Positions 15,865-28,511 of a stretch of DNA of 31,635 bases are shown in pieces (position 1 is the stretch's first letter; each line of letters starts with the position of its first letter). Origin of the DNA: a virus. Under the pieces are notes generated by a model that saw nothing but the letters and a program-made list of their open reading frames with translations, did no database searches and was not told the origin of the DNA. The DNA lies in the IMG/VR virus record IMGVR_UViG_3300027365_000044, positions 1 through 31,635 of that record; one strand, 5' to 3'. The position numbers and the translations under genes were made by a program.

Positions 15865-16224
15865 ATGAATAACGGTGATATGCCAGCAATGGCGCAAACG
15901 AATAGTGAAAACATATGCAAGCAAACAGGAACTCCAATCCATATGCATATGGGCTTAACAAAGCGTGAGCATTTTGCAGGGCGTGCTATGCAGGGGATTC
16001 TTGCAAGTGATACTCAAGTAGTGGTAACTCAGGAAGCATGCGTAAAACTAGCCGTTGAACACGCTGACGCCCTTCTTGCTGAGCTAGAAAAACCTAAAGG
16101 CTTAACCGACCTAGAGAGAGAACTGCTTGAGGCTTTGGAAACGGCTAAGAAAATAACTGAGCGTCACGGAATATTGAACACCTTTATTGATGATGCGATT
16201 GCAAAAGCCAGAGACCAGTTATGA
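15865..16224 (+). CDS. First early rightward protein, unknown function
   Basis: A 119-residue protein with an N-terminal MTLRD-like phrase (GLTKREHFAGRAMQGIL at about 30-46) that is common in small phage proteins, then a helical C-terminal half. GAGGTG lies four bases before the ATG at 15865. As the first gene after the rightward promoter it is made immediately after infection. Function not known. Confidence 0.65.
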   Translation: MNNGDMPAMAQTNSENICKQTGTPIHMHMGLTKREHFAGRAMQGILASDTQVVVTQEACVKLAVEHADALLAELEKPKGLTDLERELLEALETAKKITERHGILNTFIDDAIAKARDQL

Positions 16225-16430
16225 ACACCTCAACCCTAGAAGTAGCTTTTGCCTTGACTCTCTTAATCGGTGTAGCAATTATGGATCAAAAACAATACGA
16301 CTATTTTAACGAACAACTAGGCTGTGAAAATTCTAAAAGTGCTTTGGCATTTGCTGAGATTTTCGGTAGTAAAAACAAACAGGAAGATAAAGATGACAGA
16401 GAAACAAGTAGTAACAACAGAGCAGAATAA
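16221..16430 (+). CDS. 69-residue protein with an N-terminal membrane segment
   Basis: Residues 6-21 (LEVAFALTLLIGVAIM) are hydrophobic. The rest is charged and ends RETSSNNRAE. The ATG overlaps the previous stop as ATGA, and the end overlaps the erf start by 38 bases. Not recognised. Confidence 0.45.
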   Translation: MNTSTLEVAFALTLLIGVAIMDQKQYDYFNEQLGCENSKSALAFAEIFGSKNKQEDKDDRETSSNNRAE

Positions 16431-17121
16431 ACAGGTTTCAGTTACACCTTCAACGGTCTTAATGCAGGCTTATGAAAAAGGTGCAAGCATTGAAAATTTA
16501 ACTCAATTGCTTGAATTGCAAGAAAGATTTGAGAAACGTGAAGCCGAGAAAGCATTTAACTTGTCATTGGCTGCATTTAAGGCTAACCCGCCAAAGATAT
16601 TAAAAGACATGCATGTTGGTTACAACACATCAAAAGGCAGGACAGAATACAATCATGCCTCACTTGCAAATGTCGTTTATACAATCAGTGAGGGGTTATC
16701 AAAATATGGCTTAAGCGCATCATGGGAGACTATGCAAGACTCAGGGTTAGTTAGGGTTACTTGTATACTTGGTCATGAGTTAGGGCACGAGAAAAGAACA
16801 ACCCTAAGTGCCTCACCTGATGATTCAGGCGGAAAAAATAATATTCAAGCTATCGGATCAACTGTTTCTTATTTGCAAAGATACACGCTTTTATCAATTA
16901 CTGGCCTAGCTACGCATGACCAAGATAATGATGCTGTATCTCCACCACCTAAACCAATAAGTGATGAGCAGGCAGCAAATATCAGGGCGCTAATTGATGA
17001 GGTTGAAGGCGATATTGATGCGTTGCTGAAATACTTAAAAGTTAATTCAATCGAAGATATACCAGCAGCGGCATATAAAAGCGTTATTGACACCATTGAA
17101 CGCAAGCGAGTTAAGAAATGA
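16393..17121 (+). CDS. erf: Erf-family single-strand annealing protein
   Basis: A 242-residue recombinase of the ERF family, which anneals complementary strands and circularises or recombines phage DNA. The signature is FKANPPKILKDM, YNHASLANVVYTISEGLSKYGLS and SPDDSGGKNNIQAIGSTVSYLQRYTL over about residues 60-190. The true start is the ATG at 16393 after AGGAAG. A longer frame from 16324 has no site. The C-terminal region is a small helical domain. It is paired with the exonuclease that follows, an ATGA overlap away. Confidence 0.88.
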   Translation: MTEKQVVTTEQNKQVSVTPSTVLMQAYEKGASIENLTQLLELQERFEKREAEKAFNLSLAAFKANPPKILKDMHVGYNTSKGRTEYNHASLANVVYTISEGLSKYGLSASWETMQDSGLVRVTCILGHELGHEKRTTLSASPDDSGGKNNIQAIGSTVSYLQRYTLLSITGLATHDQDNDAVSPPPKPISDEQAANIRALIDEVEGDIDALLKYLKVNSIEDIPAAAYKSVIDTIERKRVKK

Positions 17122-17720
17122 GAATCTTCACACTTGATGAATTTGAGCAGGGTAGCGAAGAGTGGCTAGCTGTTAGGGGTAAGATTCCAACGGCTTCACA
17201 ATTTCATGCAGTAATGGCAAAGGGGCAAGGGAAGACCAGAAGAACCTATATGCTAAAACTGATAGGCCAAAGAATAACAGGGCAGCCAGCAGAATCATTC
17301 TCTAACTATCACACTGATAGAGGTCATGAGCTTGAGCCTGAGGCTTGCTCAATGTATGAATTTCAGTCAGGCAATCAAGTTAATCATGTCGCTTTTATTC
17401 TTGGCGATAATGATGCCGGTTGCTCTCCTGATGGGTTGATTGGTGATGATGGGATGCTGGAGATTAAAACAAAGCTTCCACACTTACAGATAGAAACGTT
17501 GATTGCTGACGTATTACCAAGTGAGCATAAAGCGCAGGTTCAAGGTTCTCTTTGGGTATCTGGTAGAGAGTGGTGTGACTTTGTGAGTTACTGGCCTAAG
17601 TTGCCACCATTCATAAAAAGGGTTTACCGCGACGAAAAGTATATTGATGAGCTAGCCGAATCGGTCAAGTTATTTAACGAAGAAATGAACGAACTTGAAC
17701 AAAAAATAAGGAGCATGTAA
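17118..17720 (+). CDS. YqaJ/lambda Exo-family recombination exonuclease
   Basis: A 200-residue nuclease. GSEEWLAVRGKIPTAS (12-27) and the catalytic set Glu75 (LEPE), Asp105 (SPDG), Glu115 and Lys117 (EIK), and Gln140/Gln142 (AQVQGSLWV) are all present. This family resects 5' ends to give 3' single strands for the annealing protein. It is coupled to erf at the start and to the next gene by TAATG. Confidence 0.9.
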   Translation: MRIFTLDEFEQGSEEWLAVRGKIPTASQFHAVMAKGQGKTRRTYMLKLIGQRITGQPAESFSNYHTDRGHELEPEACSMYEFQSGNQVNHVAFILGDNDAGCSPDGLIGDDGMLEIKTKLPHLQIETLIADVLPSEHKAQVQGSLWVSGREWCDFVSYWPKLPPFIKRVYRDEKYIDELAESVKLFNEEMNELEQKIRSM

Positions 17721-18733: not shown

Positions 18734-18828
18734 ATGTCAGTAAATAAGGTAATTCTCGTTGGTATAAATAAAAGCTATTTAGATTTGTATCTTTCAGGAT
18801 TAAGCATCCCTGAGGTATCAAATGCCAC
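18734..18828 (+). repeat. 95-base direct repeat, copy 1
   Basis: Matches 19089-19183, with all differences within the first 24 bases and about 73 bases identical after that. The copies are 355 bases apart and enclose the 74-residue gene. Confidence 0.85.
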
Positions 18829-18832
18829 ATAA
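18734..18832 (+). pseudogene. Truncated copy of the HNH endonuclease start
   Basis: A 32-codon frame reads [20 protein letters not shown] and stops after SNAT. From about the ninth codon to 18828 it is identical to the start of the HNH gene at 19089. The first ten residues follow SSB. It has its own ribosome site (AGGAGA). After the shared sequence ends, a TAA is reached at once, so this is a remnant, not a full gene. Confidence 0.8.
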
Positions 18833-19088: not shown

Positions 19089-19183
19089 ATGAGTGTAAAT
19101 AAAGTAATTATCGTTGGTATAAATAAAAGCTATTTAGATTTGTATCTTTCAGGATTAAGCATCCCTGAGGTATCAAATGCCAC
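19089..19183 (+). repeat. 95-base direct repeat, copy 2
   Basis: First 95 bases of the HNH gene, matching 18734-18828. Confidence 0.85.
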
Positions 19184-19625
19184 TGGAATACATAGGTCAA
19201 CCATAAGACACCGCCTCTATCGTCTTGGCTTGGTTAGAAGTCGTGCAGATGGAGTTAGAGGTGCAGCTAAAAAAGGATTGCTTGGCTCTGGCATGAGAGG
19301 TGTAAAACGATCTTTTTCTGATGAGTGGAAGCAAAAAATATCTAAAGCAAAATTAGGTAAAGGTCGTGGATGGACTCTAAAACCAAGCGGTTATATAGAA
19401 ATAACGATGGGACCAAACAAACACCGGCATCAGCACACAGTAATTATGGAAAGACATATAGGGCGAAAGTTAAATTCTGACGAGGTTGTTCATCATATTG
19501 ACGGAAATAAGACCAACAATAGCATAGCTAACTTGCAACTAATGACCGCCTCTAAACATGCATCACATCACGCAAGGGAAAGACTTGAAACTAGAGAGAG
19601 GGATAGCCTAGGGAGGTTTAAATAA
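19089..19625 (+). CDS. HNH homing endonuclease with SSB-derived start
   Basis: A 178-residue protein. Residues 1-10 ([10 protein letters not shown]) copy the start of SSB ([10 protein letters not shown]). Residues 13-48 are a helix-turn-helix ([20 protein letters not shown]). Residues 80-92 are a basic KAKLGKGRG-like segment. The HNH_3 nuclease core follows: [26 protein letters not shown] (His135, His136, Asn140) and [12 protein letters not shown]. Free-standing HNH genes of this type spread by cutting uninvaded alleles. The next gene is ssb, one base on, and AGGAG precedes the ATG. Confidence 0.85.
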
Positions 19626-22894: not shown

Positions 22895-23881
22895 ATGATT
22901 AAAATCGAACCAAAACACCAAGATCAGATTAACCAAGTATGCAAACTTGCTTCGCCAAGAGCATCAATTCAGGCTTTGGCTAATGTACTCATTGATGCAA
23001 GCGGCGAACAGACAAAAATAACAGCAGGTGATGGTAAAATCGAAATGAACTCAGTACTTGATTGTACCGTAAAAACTGGCGGAAAATTCACAGTTGACGC
23101 TCAAAAGTTTATGCAAGTATTGGGTGTTTGCGGGTATACCTGCGATATTACGATTAAAGATGGTTATATCCAGGTTAAATCAGGTAGCCGTAAATTTAAG
23201 CTGACAACTCTTGATCCGGAGTCATACCCAGCTTATGAACAGCAAGGCGATCAAATACCGATTGGAGCATCTCTCGCAGATATCAAAGCGGCATCAGTGT
23301 CTTGCGGCCAAGGAGATGCTAGGGCGTTTCTCAATGGTGTACATATAGGGGAAATCATTGCGGCATCTGATGGTCACCGTATCACTACTGCGTCAACTGA
23401 ACCGTTAACGCCAGGTATAATCATACCGGCAGAATCAATAAAGAAAGCGCCAAACGGCGATCCTGAAATTACTACTGATGGTCGAACCGTAACTATCAAG
23501 TATGAAAACGGCGAATTTAAATCTCGTCTAATTGATGCGAAATATCCAAGCTTTGACAAGGCAATTTTGCCATCAGTAAAGCATATTGAGGTTGACGCTG
23601 ATGAATTATCAGACGCAATAAAAGCGGCCATGATTACTAATGAACAAGTAAAAATTGAGTTTGATGGTAAAAATGGTCGCGTATCAGGAACAAGCAAAAA
23701 CAACGATGAAACAGATATCGGATTTAGTGCGTCAGGTGATGAAGTCGCCATGAGGTTTAACGCTAGATACCTGATAGACGCGCTTTCTTTTTATGCAGGA
23801 AACACTAGAATCGGATTTAATGATAATCAGTTAATAATTGAGGGCGCATTTACAAATGTTGTAATGTGTGTAAGGGATTGA
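22895..23881 (+). CDS. dnaN: DNA polymerase III beta sliding clamp homologue
   Basis: A 328-residue protein, shorter than bacterial clamps of about 366. Three repeats of the clamp fold can be followed: an N-terminal domain with LANVLIDASG, a middle with RAFLNGVHI and ASDGHRITT, and a C-terminal domain with FNARYLIDAL and VVMCVRD in place of the usual VVMPMRL. It would tether a polymerase to DNA. AAGGAAAG precedes the ATG. No DNA polymerase gene is in the window, so it must serve a host or outlying enzyme. Confidence 0.88.
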   Translation: MIKIEPKHQDQINQVCKLASPRASIQALANVLIDASGEQTKITAGDGKIEMNSVLDCTVKTGGKFTVDAQKFMQVLGVCGYTCDITIKDGYIQVKSGSRKFKLTTLDPESYPAYEQQGDQIPIGASLADIKAASVSCGQGDARAFLNGVHIGEIIAASDGHRITTASTEPLTPGIIIPAESIKKAPNGDPEITTDGRTVTIKYENGEFKSRLIDAKYPSFDKAILPSVKHIEVDADELSDAIKAAMITNEQVKIEFDGKNGRVSGTSKNNDETDIGFSASGDEVAMRFNARYLIDALSFYAGNTRIGFNDNQLIIEGAFTNVVMCVRD

Positions 23882-25179: not shown

Positions 25180-25450
25180 ACGAACCAACATCCTGGCACC
25201 TTGGGAGCGTAAAAAAACAGAGTTTAACGAGATCCTTCGGCTGCTGGATATTAGAACATCGACGGAGTTAGCAGACAATCTCAAGGTGCATAGAAACACG
25301 GCTTTTAAATACATGGGTGGAAGTTACGATCACACTGTCATCTTAGCAATGAGAGGGCAGCTGCTGGAGAAAAGATTGCAAGAAGGTCAACCGGTCGAAC
25401 TTGCATTAGAGAAGTACAGAAACGGTGAAAAATACAGGAGCAGGAAATGA
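25172..25450 (+). CDS. Small HTH DNA-binding protein
   Basis: A 92-residue protein from the ATG at 25172, eight bases inside yopX. The helix-turn-helix lies at about residues 25-50 (TSTELADNLKVHRNTAFKYM), with a basic C-terminus (YRNGEKYRSRK). Late in an early operon it could be a regulator of later expression, as no other obvious late activator is seen. A frame from 25127 has no ribosome site. Confidence 0.65.
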   Translation: MTKRTNILAPWERKKTEFNEILRLLDIRTSTELADNLKVHRNTAFKYMGGSYDHTVILAMRGQLLEKRLQEGQPVELALEKYRNGEKYRSRK

Positions 25451-25467
25451 AATTACCAACATTCTAA
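25447..25467 (+). pseudogene. Six-codon remnant after the HTH gene
   Basis: An ATG coupled to the HTH stop (ATGA) and preceded by CAGGAA opens a frame that ends after MKLPTF. The start signal is real in form, but the gene body is gone and the structured region follows, which suggests replacement. Confidence 0.4.
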
Positions 25468-25472
25468 TCTCA

Positions 25473-25750
25473 GCAGGCATCAATGAGCAGCCTCAGTAAA
25501 TTTAATCACTGACTTAAATTGTAGAGGGCTGAGGTTGTTCATTAATGCAAAAAAGTCTATCAGGGAAACCGATGACAGACTGGCAGCGTTCATTCTCTGC
25601 CTCGCATTACTGGTTGGCAGACCAGTTTAAAAAACTGCCATGTATTTGAGTGGTATCTAGCCTACCAAGTGCACTAACGAGTAGCTGAGGAGTGTGGCAC
25701 AGGCTAATGAAGCGAGCTGGAAAATAGATATCACTCAAATGCATAAAGCA
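25473..25750 (+). ncRNA. Large structured region, candidate noncoding RNA
   Basis: No frame in this 280-base stretch looks coding. It folds into a series of helices. P1 is 25478-25496 with 25529-25547 (18 of 19 pairs, two G-U), containing an inner 7-bp stem. P2 is 25554-25581 with a GAAA tetraloop. P3 is 25582-25586 with 25597-25601 (GGCAG/CTGCC). P4 is 25609-25626 (ACTGGT/ACCAGT). P5 is 25640-25659 with 25725-25744 (20 of 20 pairs, two G-U), enclosing a 65-base branched domain. The G-U pairs exist only in plus-strand RNA. No known family was recognised. Confidence 0.6.
25640..25744 (+). repeat. Inverted repeat with 20-base arms
   Basis: Arms 25640-25659 and 25725-25744 pair at every position as RNA, including two G-U pairs. 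Within the 65-base interior, GCCT (25660-25663) can pair with AGGC (25701-25704) and GTGC (25669-25672) with GCAC (25697-25700). Confidence 0.85.
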
Positions 25751-25769
25751 GACTTAATGGGGAATGGAT

Positions 25770-25940
25770 ATGTGTGAATACAAAGCACCACAACATGTAA
25801 TGGATGAATGGCGTAGACAGTGTAATTGCTGCCAAGCATGCAGCGATGTTCCATGTGATGGCGTTATGTCTGGCGGTGCTTGCGACAACTTATGTGATTG
25901 TGATGATGAGATCGAAGAAGACCACAAGTGCTATTACTGA
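25770..25940 (+). CDS. 56-residue cysteine-rich protein (ten Cys)
   Basis: The frame reads MCEYKAPQHVMDEWRRQCNC and ends EEDHKCYY. Cysteines are at 2, 18, 20, 21, 24, 29, 38, 42, 44 and 54, with many acidic residues between. GGGGA precedes the ATG by about seven bases. Clustered cysteines suggest a metal-binding or disulfide-rich fold. There is no signal peptide, so metal binding in the cytoplasm is more likely. It is the first gene after the structured region. Confidence 0.6.
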   Translation: MCEYKAPQHVMDEWRRQCNCCQACSDVPCDGVMSGGACDNLCDCDDEIEEDHKCYY

Positions 25941-26001
25941 GGCGAAGATTCATGCGATTGCGACATGCTTTAGATAGCAGGCTTAATAACGGAGAAATGG
26001 G

Positions 26002-26226
26002 ATGAGTGTATGGAACCCAGATAAAAAAGATATTGAAATTGTGTGCGACGCTTTAATGAGCGATTTCGCTGCAACAGATACCGGCAATTCATTATCAAGA
26101 GGAGGCTGTCTTTACTGCATCCACTGTGGGGAATACGAGGTAAGCAACGGGGGCACTGGTTCAATTAAGCACGAAACGGACTGCCCCATCCTTGTCGCTC
26201 AAGACATTATGACGGGGTTTGATTAA
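26002..26226 (+). CDS. 74-residue protein with a zinc-finger-like motif
   Basis: MSVWNPDKKDIEIVCDALMS leads to CLYCIHCGEYEV, then H and C in KHETDCPIL, enough ligands for one zinc site. The end is VAQDIMTGFD. The leader before it resembles that of the cysteine-rich gene. No family recognised. Confidence 0.6.
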   Translation: MSVWNPDKKDIEIVCDALMSDFAATDTGNSLSRGGCLYCIHCGEYEVSNGGTGSIKHETDCPILVAQDIMTGFD

Positions 26227-26281
26227 TGACCACCATAGGCCGCTGCACAAGCAGTGTACTACTTAACAATGGGGAAATAGT

Positions 26282-26431
26282 GTGAGAACCAAATATAAGA
26301 TAAAACGATTTTTAAAACGAATAATGTGTGAGCATGAATGGGAGGAATTGCCATATATGTCTCTAAACAGCACTGACTTTAGGCCGTCATACCTTTGCCG
26401 TAAATGCGGTACGTATAAGAACCCAGAATGA
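26282..26431 (+). CDS. 49-residue basic protein with zinc-ribbon cysteines
   Basis: A GTG at 26282 with GGGGA nine bases before opens a frame reading MRTKYKIKRFLKRIMCEHEW, then YLCRKCGTYKNPE. CEH (16-18) and CRKC (39-42) could hold a zinc ion. The N-terminus is very basic. Small size and GTG start leave some doubt. Confidence 0.5.
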   Translation: MRTKYKIKRFLKRIMCEHEWEELPYMSLNSTDFRPSYLCRKCGTYKNPE

Positions 26432-26462
26432 AATACCATATCAGAGTTGAGGATTATGAGTG

Positions 26463-26672
26463 ATGGTATACATAGATTTACTTTTAGATAACGGTGAGCT
26501 GGTCAGGATTGAGTGCCCTACCAAGTTTTTTGACGCCTGCATGGATTCACTAGAACACACCATGAAGCGAAAAGATTGGTGGTCACCTGAACAGTTTGAT
26601 GGATGCAGAGCTGAATACCTGGGCTTATCAATGTCGCGTGTTGCTATGCATAAAGTGGTCGGCTTTCTTTAA
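26463..26672 (+). CDS. Hypothetical protein, 69 residues
   Basis: MVYIDLLLDNGELVRIECPT begins a small alpha/beta protein with WWSPEQFDGCRAEYLG in the middle. Start is the ATG at 26463. A GTG three bases earlier is also possible. GAGG lies eleven bases upstream. Not recognised. Confidence 0.6.
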   Translation: MVYIDLLLDNGELVRIECPTKFFDACMDSLEHTMKRKDWWSPEQFDGCRAEYLGLSMSRVAMHKVVGFL

Positions 26673-26718
26673 CGGGTACTTTCCAAAATGGAAACAACCA
26701 CTATAGATGGAGATTGAT

Positions 26719-26973
26719 ATGACAAAAATAAGAGTTGAAAGCTACGAGATTGATACGAAAGACATTGTAAAAATAACTGACGCAGGTTGGCGGCGAATTG
26801 GCTTTCATATTCACTTGGTCGGTGGCCGTGTACTAACCATCGACAGAGAAAAGCCCTATGACATGACTGGAGAAAGGGTTAGTGCGTTACGCGATCCCTA
26901 CCGAAGACTTAGAAAAGAAGTCGAGAAAAAATGGGCTGAAGACAAAAGCGAGATAGAGACTTTCTGTCTATAG
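26719..26973 (+). CDS. Hypothetical protein, 84 residues
   Basis: Start is the ATG at 26719, five bases after GGAG, not the upstream ATG at 26707. MTKIRVESYEIDTKDIVKIT and FHIHLVGGRVLTIDREKPY are beta strands, and the C-terminal third is a charged helix. Not recognised. Confidence 0.6.
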   Translation: MTKIRVESYEIDTKDIVKITDAGWRRIGFHIHLVGGRVLTIDREKPYDMTGERVSALRDPYRRLRKEVEKKWAEDKSEIETFCL

Positions 26974-26991
26974 ATGAATTGGAGGTGTGAG

Positions 26992-27237
26992 GTGATTAAT
27001 AAAAAATTATTTACAACTTACGACGTGACAACCCCGAAAGGGGTAGTTCAAACATTAAAAAATATATGGGTTTGGTGTGATGAAGGTAAAGCTGAAAAAG
27101 CAATACTTTATCGTAATTATTCAATCCAAGGGAATACAAACAAAGCCGTTGCAGAACGTATTACGCATTGTTTAAAACCCTTTCCAAATGCAAAAGTGGT
27201 TTTAATTGAAACGGCTTTTGTGCCTTTTGAGAGTTAA
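26992..27237 (+). CDS. Hypothetical protein, 81 residues
   Basis: GGAGG (26981-26985) lies six bases before a GTG at 26992, which is preferred over the ATG at 26974. The product has a beta-rich N-terminal half (KKLFTTYDVTTPKGVVQTL) and a helix NTNKAVAERITHCLK. Not recognised. Confidence 0.6.
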   Translation: MINKKLFTTYDVTTPKGVVQTLKNIWVWCDEGKAEKAILYRNYSIQGNTNKAVAERITHCLKPFPNAKVVLIETAFVPFES

Positions 27238-27241
27238 CAGC

Positions 27242-27544
27242 ATGACCAAACCAACAAAAGAACAGATTGAGTCCGTTATAAATAGACTCCCGTCAAATTT
27301 AGTGCCTAACAATTATAGCTGGGCATCCGCATTGACAGCTATTACTAGATTAAAAACTGAATATAACAACGCAATTATTAGAGTGGAAAACCTTGAGTCA
27401 GTTATAAGAGAAGTGCTAGAGGACAACCTTGATCTTACTGACGGAGACAATTGCACATTAATTAAACTTAAAAAATCAATCAACTTTGATGAAACTAGAC
27501 CTCTAAGCGAAGAACAAGTTCATTTTCAAAGATGGTGCGACTAG
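27242..27544 (+). CDS. Hypothetical helical protein, 100 residues
   Basis: Starts MTKPTKEQIESVINRLPSNL at 27242, four bases after the previous stop. A coiled-coil-like helix (AIIRVENLESVIREVLE) fills the middle. A frame from 27206 lies inside the previous gene and is not preferred. Not recognised. Confidence 0.55.
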   Translation: MTKPTKEQIESVINRLPSNLVPNNYSWASALTAITRLKTEYNNAIIRVENLESVIREVLEDNLDLTDGDNCTLIKLKKSINFDETRPLSEEQVHFQRWCD

Positions 27545-27567: not shown

Positions 27568-27798
27568 ATGATGGGTGATAAATACGAAATGTTTGTAGCT
27601 GAAATGGAGTCGGCAAGAAACGAAGCTTGTGAAGCTTATTTCAAAGCAAGACCACAATTATTTGTAACGGCTGAAAAAGAAAAAATATTTGAGGCTGGAT
27701 TTGAAAGGGCTTATAAACAACAAGCCGAAACGATTGAGCTGCTTAAACATGGAATGAAAGGTGACTACGACCTATACCAATGGTTGATTGGGCTATAA
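27568..27798 (+). CDS. Hypothetical helical protein, 76 residues
   Basis: AGGAGA precedes two adjacent ATGs at 27568 and 27571. The product is helical and charged (EMFVAEMESARNEACEAYF, EAGFERAYKQQAETIELL). Not recognised. Confidence 0.6.
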   Translation: MMGDKYEMFVAEMESARNEACEAYFKARPQLFVTAEKEKIFEAGFERAYKQQAETIELLKHGMKGDYDLYQWLIGL

Positions 27799-27809: not shown

Positions 27810-27950
27810 ATGATGGAAACGATTGAGCGGTTGAAGGCTGCATTAACTAATGTCAAAAACTGCCCTGAATCTGATTTAGCTGCATACGTTAAATCAGTTG
27901 ACGGCATCGTATGTGAAACATTAACAAAACTAGAGGCAGGTGAGTTATGA
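27810..27950 (+). CDS. 46-residue hypothetical protein
   Basis: MMETIERLKAALTNVKNCPE leads to a second helix DLAAYVKSVDGIVCETLTKL. An in-frame ATG at 27780 would add ten residues. Neither start has a good ribosome site. The stop overlaps the next ATG as ATGA, which supports it. Confidence 0.45.
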   Translation: MMETIERLKAALTNVKNCPESDLAAYVKSVDGIVCETLTKLEAGEL

Positions 27951-28300
27951 GTGAATTTACAGAAGAAGTGATAATTGACTCTTTGCGTAGACAATTAAAG
28001 ACAGCAATGGAACTGGCTGAGTCAGCAACAGAAAATGTGCTTGAGCTAGATCAACAAATAAAAGCATACAAAGCCAAACTCGGCCTAATCTCAATCGCTG
28101 CTGATGAAGGTAACCTGGCAAAGGTTAAAGAGCTTATACCGCCCTCTTGTGCTGATGTGGTTAGGGAGATGAGGGCTGAGGCTGTTGAGACGGTAGCTAA
28201 TGACCACCGACTAAGAGTATTGGATGGGCCGGACATTTACTCAGATGGGCTTATTGAATACGCCAACCAACTACGCAACCCAGAACAAGAGAAGGTGTGA
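27947..28300 (+). CDS. Hypothetical helical protein, 117 residues
   Basis: A helical protein with a coiled-coil start (DSLRRQLKTAMELAESATEN, LELDQQIKAYKAKL) and a C-terminal region PPSCADVVREMRAEAVE. Such proteins are common at the distal ends of phage early operons. Not recognised. Confidence 0.6.
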   Translation: MSEFTEEVIIDSLRRQLKTAMELAESATENVLELDQQIKAYKAKLGLISIAADEGNLAKVKELIPPSCADVVREMRAEAVETVANDHRLRVLDGPDIYSDGLIEYANQLRNPEQEKV

Positions 28301-28416: not shown

Positions 28417-28466
28417 TTCGTCTAACACCGGCTATGATTTTCTTTTTCAAGCGGTTCTCTCCAGGC

Positions 28467-28491
28467 AATAAAAAACCCGCCGAAGCGGGTT
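28467..28491 (-). terminator. Rho-independent terminator between convergent operons
   Basis: A 7-bp perfect stem (AACCCGC/GCGGGTT) with a TTCG loop on the minus strand is followed by a T run (TTTTTT). It ends the tailspike message. On the plus strand the T run is weak, so it may act on both strands unequally. Confidence 0.85.
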
Positions 28492-28511
28492 GTCTATTGA
28501 ATATAATTGAA

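What the first reader, a model, noticed from the sequence alone, without database searches (positions are those of the whole stretch)
25473..25750. Gene-free, highly structured stretch: candidate new phage noncoding RNA
In a tightly packed operon, about 280 bases hold no plausible gene but at least five successive helices, one capped by a GAAA tetraloop. Both long helices (18 of 19 and 20 of 20 pairs) use G-U pairs that would be A-C mismatches on the opposite strand, so selection seems to act on plus-strand RNA. The stretch follows a six-codon gene remnant. I recognise no known RNA family.
Basis: partly seen in the sequence, partly recalled or inferred. Interest (0 to 1): 0.75.

Follow-up and report, generated by a model that had tools for sequence, protein, structure and literature searches.

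The report
Conserved RNA stem-loop linker between phage genes
A gene-free stretch in a phage genome holds two long RNA stems that recur in related phages as part of a series of conserved joints between genes, while the genes on either side of the joints have been swapped for unrelated ones.

Summary
The gene-free, structured stretch is real. In RNA sense, two 20-bp stems, A (25477-25548) and E (25640-25744), are the best stems in the window, and the plus strand of 25473-25750 folds far better than shuffles (z -5.45). The helices between them (B-D) are marginal and not conserved. A degenerate search of IMG/VR found two related phages. L195 carries A and E; L196 carries A alone. Stems are conserved and loops are not. 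E differs between phages by three paired double changes, and its wobbles pair only on the coding-sense RNA (L195: -31.8 kcal/mol plus, -12.1 minus). So RNA-level selection is plausible, but from two E sequences.

The element does not look like a free-standing noncoding RNA. A starts at or within 11 bases of the upstream stop codon; E (or A) sits in the leader of the next gene. Both belong to about nine collinear junctions, 27-43 nt at about 90-100% identity, shared by these phages although most genes between them are unrelated. Best reading: a structured conserved intercistronic linker that lets genes be exchanged, its stems acting in cis on the mRNA, probably as RNase III-type processing hairpins (inferred). 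Closest known: lambdoid boundary sequences and T4 PeSLs; it lacks promoter and terminator.

The parts
25447..25467 (+). six-codon ORF MKLPTF* whose start overlaps the upstream stop (ATGA), with an AGGAG ribosome-binding site; its tail CTAAtCTCAGCAGG matches the end of a real gene in L196 (CTAAcCTCAGCAGG), so it is probably what is left of a replaced gene
   Evidence: sequence; alignment with L196
25476..25548 (+). stem-loop A: arms 25477-25496 / 25529-25548, 19 of 20 pairs, variable loop; first 28 and last 28 nt identical in three phages
25552..25583 (.). hairpin B (GAAA loop on plus); more stable on the minus strand and followed there by T6; not conserved
   Evidence: sequence
25582..25626 (+). 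weak hairpins C (25582-25601) and D (25609-25626); not conserved in L195 or L196
25616..25639 (+). GGCAG...CTGCC hairpin just before E, present in L195 too; competes with D and with pairing of CTGC (25635-25638) to GCAG (25748-25751)
   Evidence: inference for the competition
25640..25744 (+). stem-loop E: arms 25640-25659 / 25725-25744, 20 of 20 pairs with two G-U, variable 65-nt loop; homologue in L195 with three double changes
25745..25772 (+). conserved leader of the next gene: GCAGACTTAATGGGGAATGGATATG, ribosome-binding site GGGGA 25759-25763, start codon 25764 or 25770
   Evidence: 95% identical with L195 over 43 nt
25972..26005 (+). linker J3, shared by the three phages; encodes the tail ..RLNNGEMG* and the next gene's ribosome-binding site and start
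26225..26272 (+). linker J4 (mini-hairpin CTGC-ACAA-GCAG, then CTTAACAATGGGG)
26429..26465 (+). linker J5
26675..26709 (+). linker J6; in L196 it encodes the last codons of a csrA gene, here a noncoding relic (VLSKMETTTID)
26968..26995 (+). linker J7 (shared with L196)
27242..27270 (+). linker J8 (MTKPTKEQI start, shared with L196; partly with L195)
27711..27739 (+). linker J9 (inside coding sequence, YKQQAETIE)
27919..27957 (+). linker J10, shared by the three phages
16324..17720 (+). ERF-type annealing protein and YqaJ exonuclease, a phage recombination system that could act at such short homologies (role inferred)
   Evidence: Pfam PF04404 and PF09588

Best explanation
The stretch is a structured intercistronic linker of the phage's early operon. 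Two long stem-loops are made only as part of the polycistronic plus-strand mRNA. A lies just behind the stop codon of the upstream gene; E lies in the leader of the next gene. The stems matter and the loops do not. The likeliest cis role is as double-stranded processing or protection hairpins: host RNase III (or a similar nuclease) would cut the stems, separate the two messages, and leave a hairpin-protected 3' end and a defined leader with its ribosome-binding site. The stretch is one of about nine collinear conserved linkers at the borders of exchangeable genes. By homologous annealing at these linkers, phage recombinases (ERF/YqaJ here, RecT in L195) can swap the genes while the stop, hairpin and ribosome-binding-site signals stay in place. 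SHOWN: stems, coding-sense strand bias of E, paired changes in E, linker conservation and collinearity, mostly unrelated genes between linkers, recombinase genes. INFERRED: nuclease processing, and recombination as the cause of the pattern.
For: Two IMG/VR phages carry the element: L195 both A and E, L196 A only. First and last 28 nt of A are identical in all three, loops of different length; A folds at z -5.2 to -7.1 in all three. E in the window against L195: 97.5% of cells paired, three double changes, one A-U to G-U change, 0 double changes in slid controls. All five wobble positions are plus-sense; L195 E is -31.8 on plus and -12.1 on minus. In all three phages A begins at or within 11 nt of a stop codon and the element ends before the next gene's ribosome-binding site. 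Nine collinear junctions are about 90-100% identical over 27-43 nt, with most proteins between them unrelated at E <= 1e-3; core genes are only about 66-72% identical at DNA level. Junctions sit at gene starts more often than chance (0.6% and 0.2% of random placements). ERF, YqaJ and RecT found. Literature: Rad52-like phage recombinases drive mosaicism by relaxed homologous recombination (PMC3945230).
Against: Only three phages for A and two for E. With two sequences the shuffle control for covariation is not significant (57 of 500). The arms of A do not vary, so A gives no covariation evidence; their identity could reflect recent exchange rather than RNA function. A folds about equally well (by z) on the minus strand. 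No RNase III or transcript data exist. Other linkers (J4, J0) are not unusually structured, so structure is not general to the set.
Confidence: 0.5

Rival explanations
1. A discrete, trans-acting or protein-binding phage small RNA of 100-280 bases, released from or transcribed within the operon.
For: Most significant plus-strand fold of the window; gene-free; element recurs in relatives.
Against: No promoter and no plus-strand terminator. Loops and middle helices, where a seed or binding site would lie, are not conserved. L196 keeps only A. Both stems keep fixed positions at gene ends and starts.
Confidence: 0.12
2. DNA-level element: inverted repeats as recombination, replication or operator sites (cruciform or single-stranded hairpin), with RNA structure a by-product.
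For: A folds about equally well (by z) on both strands, its arms are sequence-identical in three phages, and it lies in a series of conserved DNA junctions.
Against: E has wobbles only in plus sense, and in L195 it hardly folds on the minus strand (-12.1, z -1.2); a DNA palindrome would keep Watson-Crick pairs. No direct repeats flank A or E by eye, and no second copy was found.
Confidence: 0.18
3. Leader-type translational regulation: MKLPTF translation, or the choice of CTGC to pair with GGCAG upstream or GCAG next to the ribosome-binding site, switches access to the downstream start.
For: GGCAG, CTGCC and GCAG are all kept in L195; MKLPTF has a good ribosome-binding site; the window fold pairs CTGC with GCAG.
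Against: MKLPTF is not shared; in L195 and L196 full genes precede A. The downstream genes are unrelated, and the switch rests on four or five bases in two sequences.
Confidence: 0.1
4. Neutral leftovers of past gene replacements: junction sequences inherited or recently transferred together, with no present role for the stems.
For: J6 in the window is a noncoding relic of the end of csrA; the six-codon ORF looks like such a relic; junctions are similarly conserved whether structured or not.
Against: Compensated differences in E argue for upkeep of the stem; linkers are more conserved than the core genes.
Confidence: 0.15

Closest known systems
PeSLs (promoter early stem-loops) of T4-type phages (Arbiol et al. 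2010; Comeau et al. 2014; described second-hand in PMC4503421)
   Same: Stem-loop elements between genes in a shuffled region of a phage genome, proposed to mediate exchange of genes.
   Different: No promoter and no U-tract terminator here; single copy per genome rather than many; much longer stems (20 bp). The original papers were not held and could not be read.
Conserved boundary or linker sequences at module borders of lambdoid phages (referred to in PMC3029335 and PMC4546147)
   Same: Short conserved sequences at gene borders with unrelated genes between; homologous recombination proposed.
   Different: Here about nine successive, distinct, collinear linkers border small early genes, and one of them carries two long RNA stems. 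PMC3029335 notes that boundary sequences cannot be found at most mosaic borders.
RNase III processing hairpins between early genes of phage T7 (own knowledge)
   Same: Long intercistronic double-stranded stems in a polycistronic early mRNA; loops not critical.
   Different: Cleavage not tested; no sequence relationship; two stems in one spacer.
Rfam families
   Same: Structured, gene-free.
   Different: No family reached its gathering score; the best weak match (a microRNA precursor model, E 0.014) is a generic hairpin.

Membership tests
PeSL of T4-type phages | stem-loop in an intergenic region between exchanged genes | tested here: met
PeSL of T4-type phages | associated early promoter / terminator | tested here: not met
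   No promoter or terminator in 25473-25770 by consensus scan; phage-specific promoters not covered
PeSL of T4-type phages | many copies per genome | tested here: not met
   One copy of A and E in the window; profile search finds one A per phage
Boundary (linker) sequences of mosaic phages | short conserved sequences at gene borders with unrelated genes between | tested here: met
Boundary (linker) sequences of mosaic phages | recombination actually occurs at them | not testable with these tools
   needs crosses; phage recombinases present
RNase III processing site | about two turns of double-stranded RNA in a transcript | tested here: met
   20-bp stems A and E, predicted
RNase III processing site | cleavage by RNase III | not testable with these tools
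   no expression data
Known Rfam RNA (riboswitch, ribozyme, small RNA) | covariance-model match at gathering score | tested here: not met
Hammerhead ribozyme (considered for E: CUAAUGA...GGAAAA at a three-way junction) | catalytic core CUGAUGA...GAAA | tested here: not met
   G5 and C3 absent by inspection; no Rfam match up to E 10; interior not conserved in L195
Retron ncRNA (considered for E: long inverted ends) | adjacent reverse transcriptase and msd hairpin | tested here: inconclusive
   No reverse transcriptase recognised among adjacent ORFs; not every window ORF was scanned, record may be incomplete; 65-nt interior is short
MITE / insertion with terminal inverted repeats | direct target duplications or other copies | tested here: not met
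   No second copy in the window; no direct repeats flanking A or E by eye

The most novel reading that the evidence does not exclude
A new class of phage RNA element: paired 20-bp intercistronic stems that travel as a standard joint in a 'plug-in' gene array, giving any exchanged gene an insulated, separately processed message. The phage region would be built of ordered, standardised linkers into which genes are swapped by the phage's own annealing recombinase.
Probability: 0.3. Interest if true: 0.65.

Novelty: new variant of a known kind. Interest (0 to 1): 0.5.

Why it matters
How phage genomes swap single genes without breaking operon expression is an old question; boundary sequences have been proposed but are said not to be found at most mosaic borders (PMC3029335). 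Here three metagenomic phages show a run of about nine distinct linkers in the same order around mostly unrelated genes, and one linker carries two long RNA stems that appear to be kept as RNA. That gives a compact natural case in which recombination at linkers and insulation of exchanged messages by RNA hairpins can both be tested.

Tried and rejected
Coding gene: no family or tblastn match for the 34-codon ORF, which contains a 25-codon frame with a ribosome-binding site; coding score marginal.

Direct homology in phage, plasmid and prokaryote collections: none (in one search, 36 of 369 genomes at E <= 0.1 is the chance rate).

First IMG/VR pattern (ATTTGAGTGGTATCTA): 13 hits, all chance, because the distal part of E varies.

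Single-sequence covariance models found no homologue, and the E model missed even the true E of L195, so these negatives mean little.

Protein-anchored searches with neighbouring or core genes did not reach the element.

The search that worked was the A arm with R/Y at wobble positions; L197, found by the same pattern, has a single arm and is chance.

Hammerhead, retron, MITE and riboswitch were considered and dropped or left open (membership table).

Minus-strand transcript ending at hairpin B plus T6: no promoter found and B not conserved.

Full report
WHAT IS THERE. The window is a 31,635-base linear virus record. Its best match in phage records by the clamp gene is Alteromonas phage XX1924: methylase 74%, helicase 70% in best translated segments, DNA clamp 35%. 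Between the gene ending at 25450 and the gene starting at 25764/25770 lie about 300 bases with no recognisable gene. Two long stems stand out: A, 25477-25496 with 25529-25548, and E, 25640-25659 with 25725-25744. They are the top two RNA-sense stems of the window; in 20 Markov genomes the best stem scored 13-19 against 20 for E. The plus fold of 25473-25750 has z -5.45, the minus fold z -3.15. Taken apart, A has z about -5 on both strands, E -4.2 on plus and -2.6 on minus, B -2.5 on plus and -4.1 on minus; C+D are about -1.9, and the inside of E has none.

FINDING RELATIVES. Direct searches of phages, plasmids, Gammaproteobacteria genomes and 80-170 relative loci found nothing. The arm of A written with R/Y at wobble positions found two IMG/VR contigs that carry it twice as an inverted pair: L195 (44.7 kb) and L196 (13.5 kb). 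The pattern required one 18-nt arm. The second arm, the extension of identity to 28 nt at each end of A, and the presence of E in L195 were not selected for.

WHAT IS CONSERVED. In all three phages the first and last 28 nt of A are identical, and the loop differs in sequence and length. L195 also has E, 24 nt after A, with the CTGCC before it and the 43-nt 3' arm plus leader up to the next start codon (95% identical). Window hairpins B, C and D have no counterpart. A shorter GGCAG...CTGCC hairpin next to E is in both. The two E stems differ at five pair positions: three double changes that keep pairing (A-U to G-C, U-A to G-U, A-U to U-G), one A-U to G-U, and one end pair lost. Wobbles at five positions are all plus-sense; the L195 stem folds at -31.8 on plus and -12.1 on minus. 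Slid controls show no double changes; the shuffle control with two sequences is not significant (57 of 500). This supports upkeep of E as RNA in coding sense, with the caution due to two sequences. A does not vary, so it cannot be tested by covariation.

CONTEXT: A SERIES OF LINKERS. Comparison of the whole contigs shows the element is one of a run of short, nearly identical, collinear junctions: 25972-26005, 26225-26272, 26429-26465, 26675-26709, 26968-26995, 27242-27270, 27711-27739, 27919-27957 and others, 27-43 nt and about 90-100% identical. Most proteins between them have no relationship at E <= 1e-3; the exceptions are the families at 27532, 27780 and 27947, plus two proteins, one of them CsrA, that only L195 and L196 share with each other. 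Core genes such as SSB are only about 66-68% identical at DNA level. The junctions hold the end of one gene, a ribosome-binding site and the next start more often than random placement would (0.6% and 0.2% of trials). Junction 26675-26709 is, in L196, the coding end of a csrA gene (Pfam PF02599); in the window it is a noncoding relic. The six-codon MKLPTF ORF ends in the same CTAA-CTCAGCAGG that ends a real gene in L196, so it too is probably a relic. In each phage A begins at or within 11 nt of a stop codon, and E (or A in L196) leads into the next ribosome-binding site.

MECHANISM. Stems conserved, loops free, fixed position at gene end and gene start, coding-sense pairing, no promoter and no terminator: these point to a cis role in the polycistronic mRNA rather than a separate regulatory RNA, aptamer or ribozyme. 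Stems of about two helical turns between early genes are typical substrates of RNase III, as between T7 early genes (own knowledge); that step is inferred. The linker role is inferred from the pattern of conserved joints and replaced genes. Phage recombination genes are present (ERF and YqaJ here, RecT in L195), and Rad52-like phage recombinases are known to drive mosaicism by relaxed homologous recombination (PMC3945230). Whether 30-40 nt is enough in these phages is untested.

RELATION TO KNOWN THINGS. Boundary sequences of mosaic phages are the nearest kind (PMC3029335, PMC4546147); T4 PeSLs are stem-loop cassettes between shuffled genes but carry promoters and terminators and occur at high density (second-hand, PMC4503421; the original papers were not held). 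No Rfam family fits. I rate it a new variant of a known kind.

LIMITS. Three metagenomic contigs, two for E; viral scans exhausted; no expression data; host unknown.

Noticed in passing
window 18734-18832 and 19089-19625: An HNH endonuclease ORF begins with the first codons of the SSB gene (MSVNK.I.VG), and a truncated copy of its 5' end lies about 350 bases upstream, as if the SSB start region had served as a joint for insertion.
   Followed up: partly
L195 3605-3778 (-), L196 9647-9823 (-): These phages encode CsrA homologues (Pfam PF02599); the window phage has lost the gene but keeps the DNA of its last codons as linker 26675-26709.
   Followed up: partly
window 16063-16396 / L195 7883-8267: The recombinase genes share a conserved start region (MKILKVLWHLLRF, 72% DNA identity), but the window protein is ERF-type and the L195 protein RecT-type: a module swap inside a gene.
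   Followed up: partly
window 25745-25772, 25977-26005, 26225-26285; L196 (contig orientation reversed) 2290-2330: Several leaders share CTTAAYAA followed by a G-rich ribosome-binding site, some preceded by a mini-hairpin with an ACAA loop (CTGC-ACAA-GCAG, GCC-ACAA-GGC).
   Followed up: partly
window 22895-23881: Phage-encoded DNA polymerase sliding clamp (DnaN-like), 35% identical to one in Alteromonas phage XX1924.
   Followed up: no
window 25549-25583, minus strand: Hairpin B on the minus strand has a continuous 9-bp stem followed by six T, like a weak terminator, but no minus-strand gene or promoter is near.
   Followed up: partly
window 28455-28507: About 53 nt near the end of the tail-fibre gene match terminator regions of many HK022-like E. 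coli phages (81.5%).
   Followed up: no
L195 4356-4829 (-): The gene directly after element E in L195 belongs to the T4 gp30.3 family (PF08010, E 1.3e-50), unrelated to the 58-residue cysteine-rich protein in the same place in the window.
   Followed up: no
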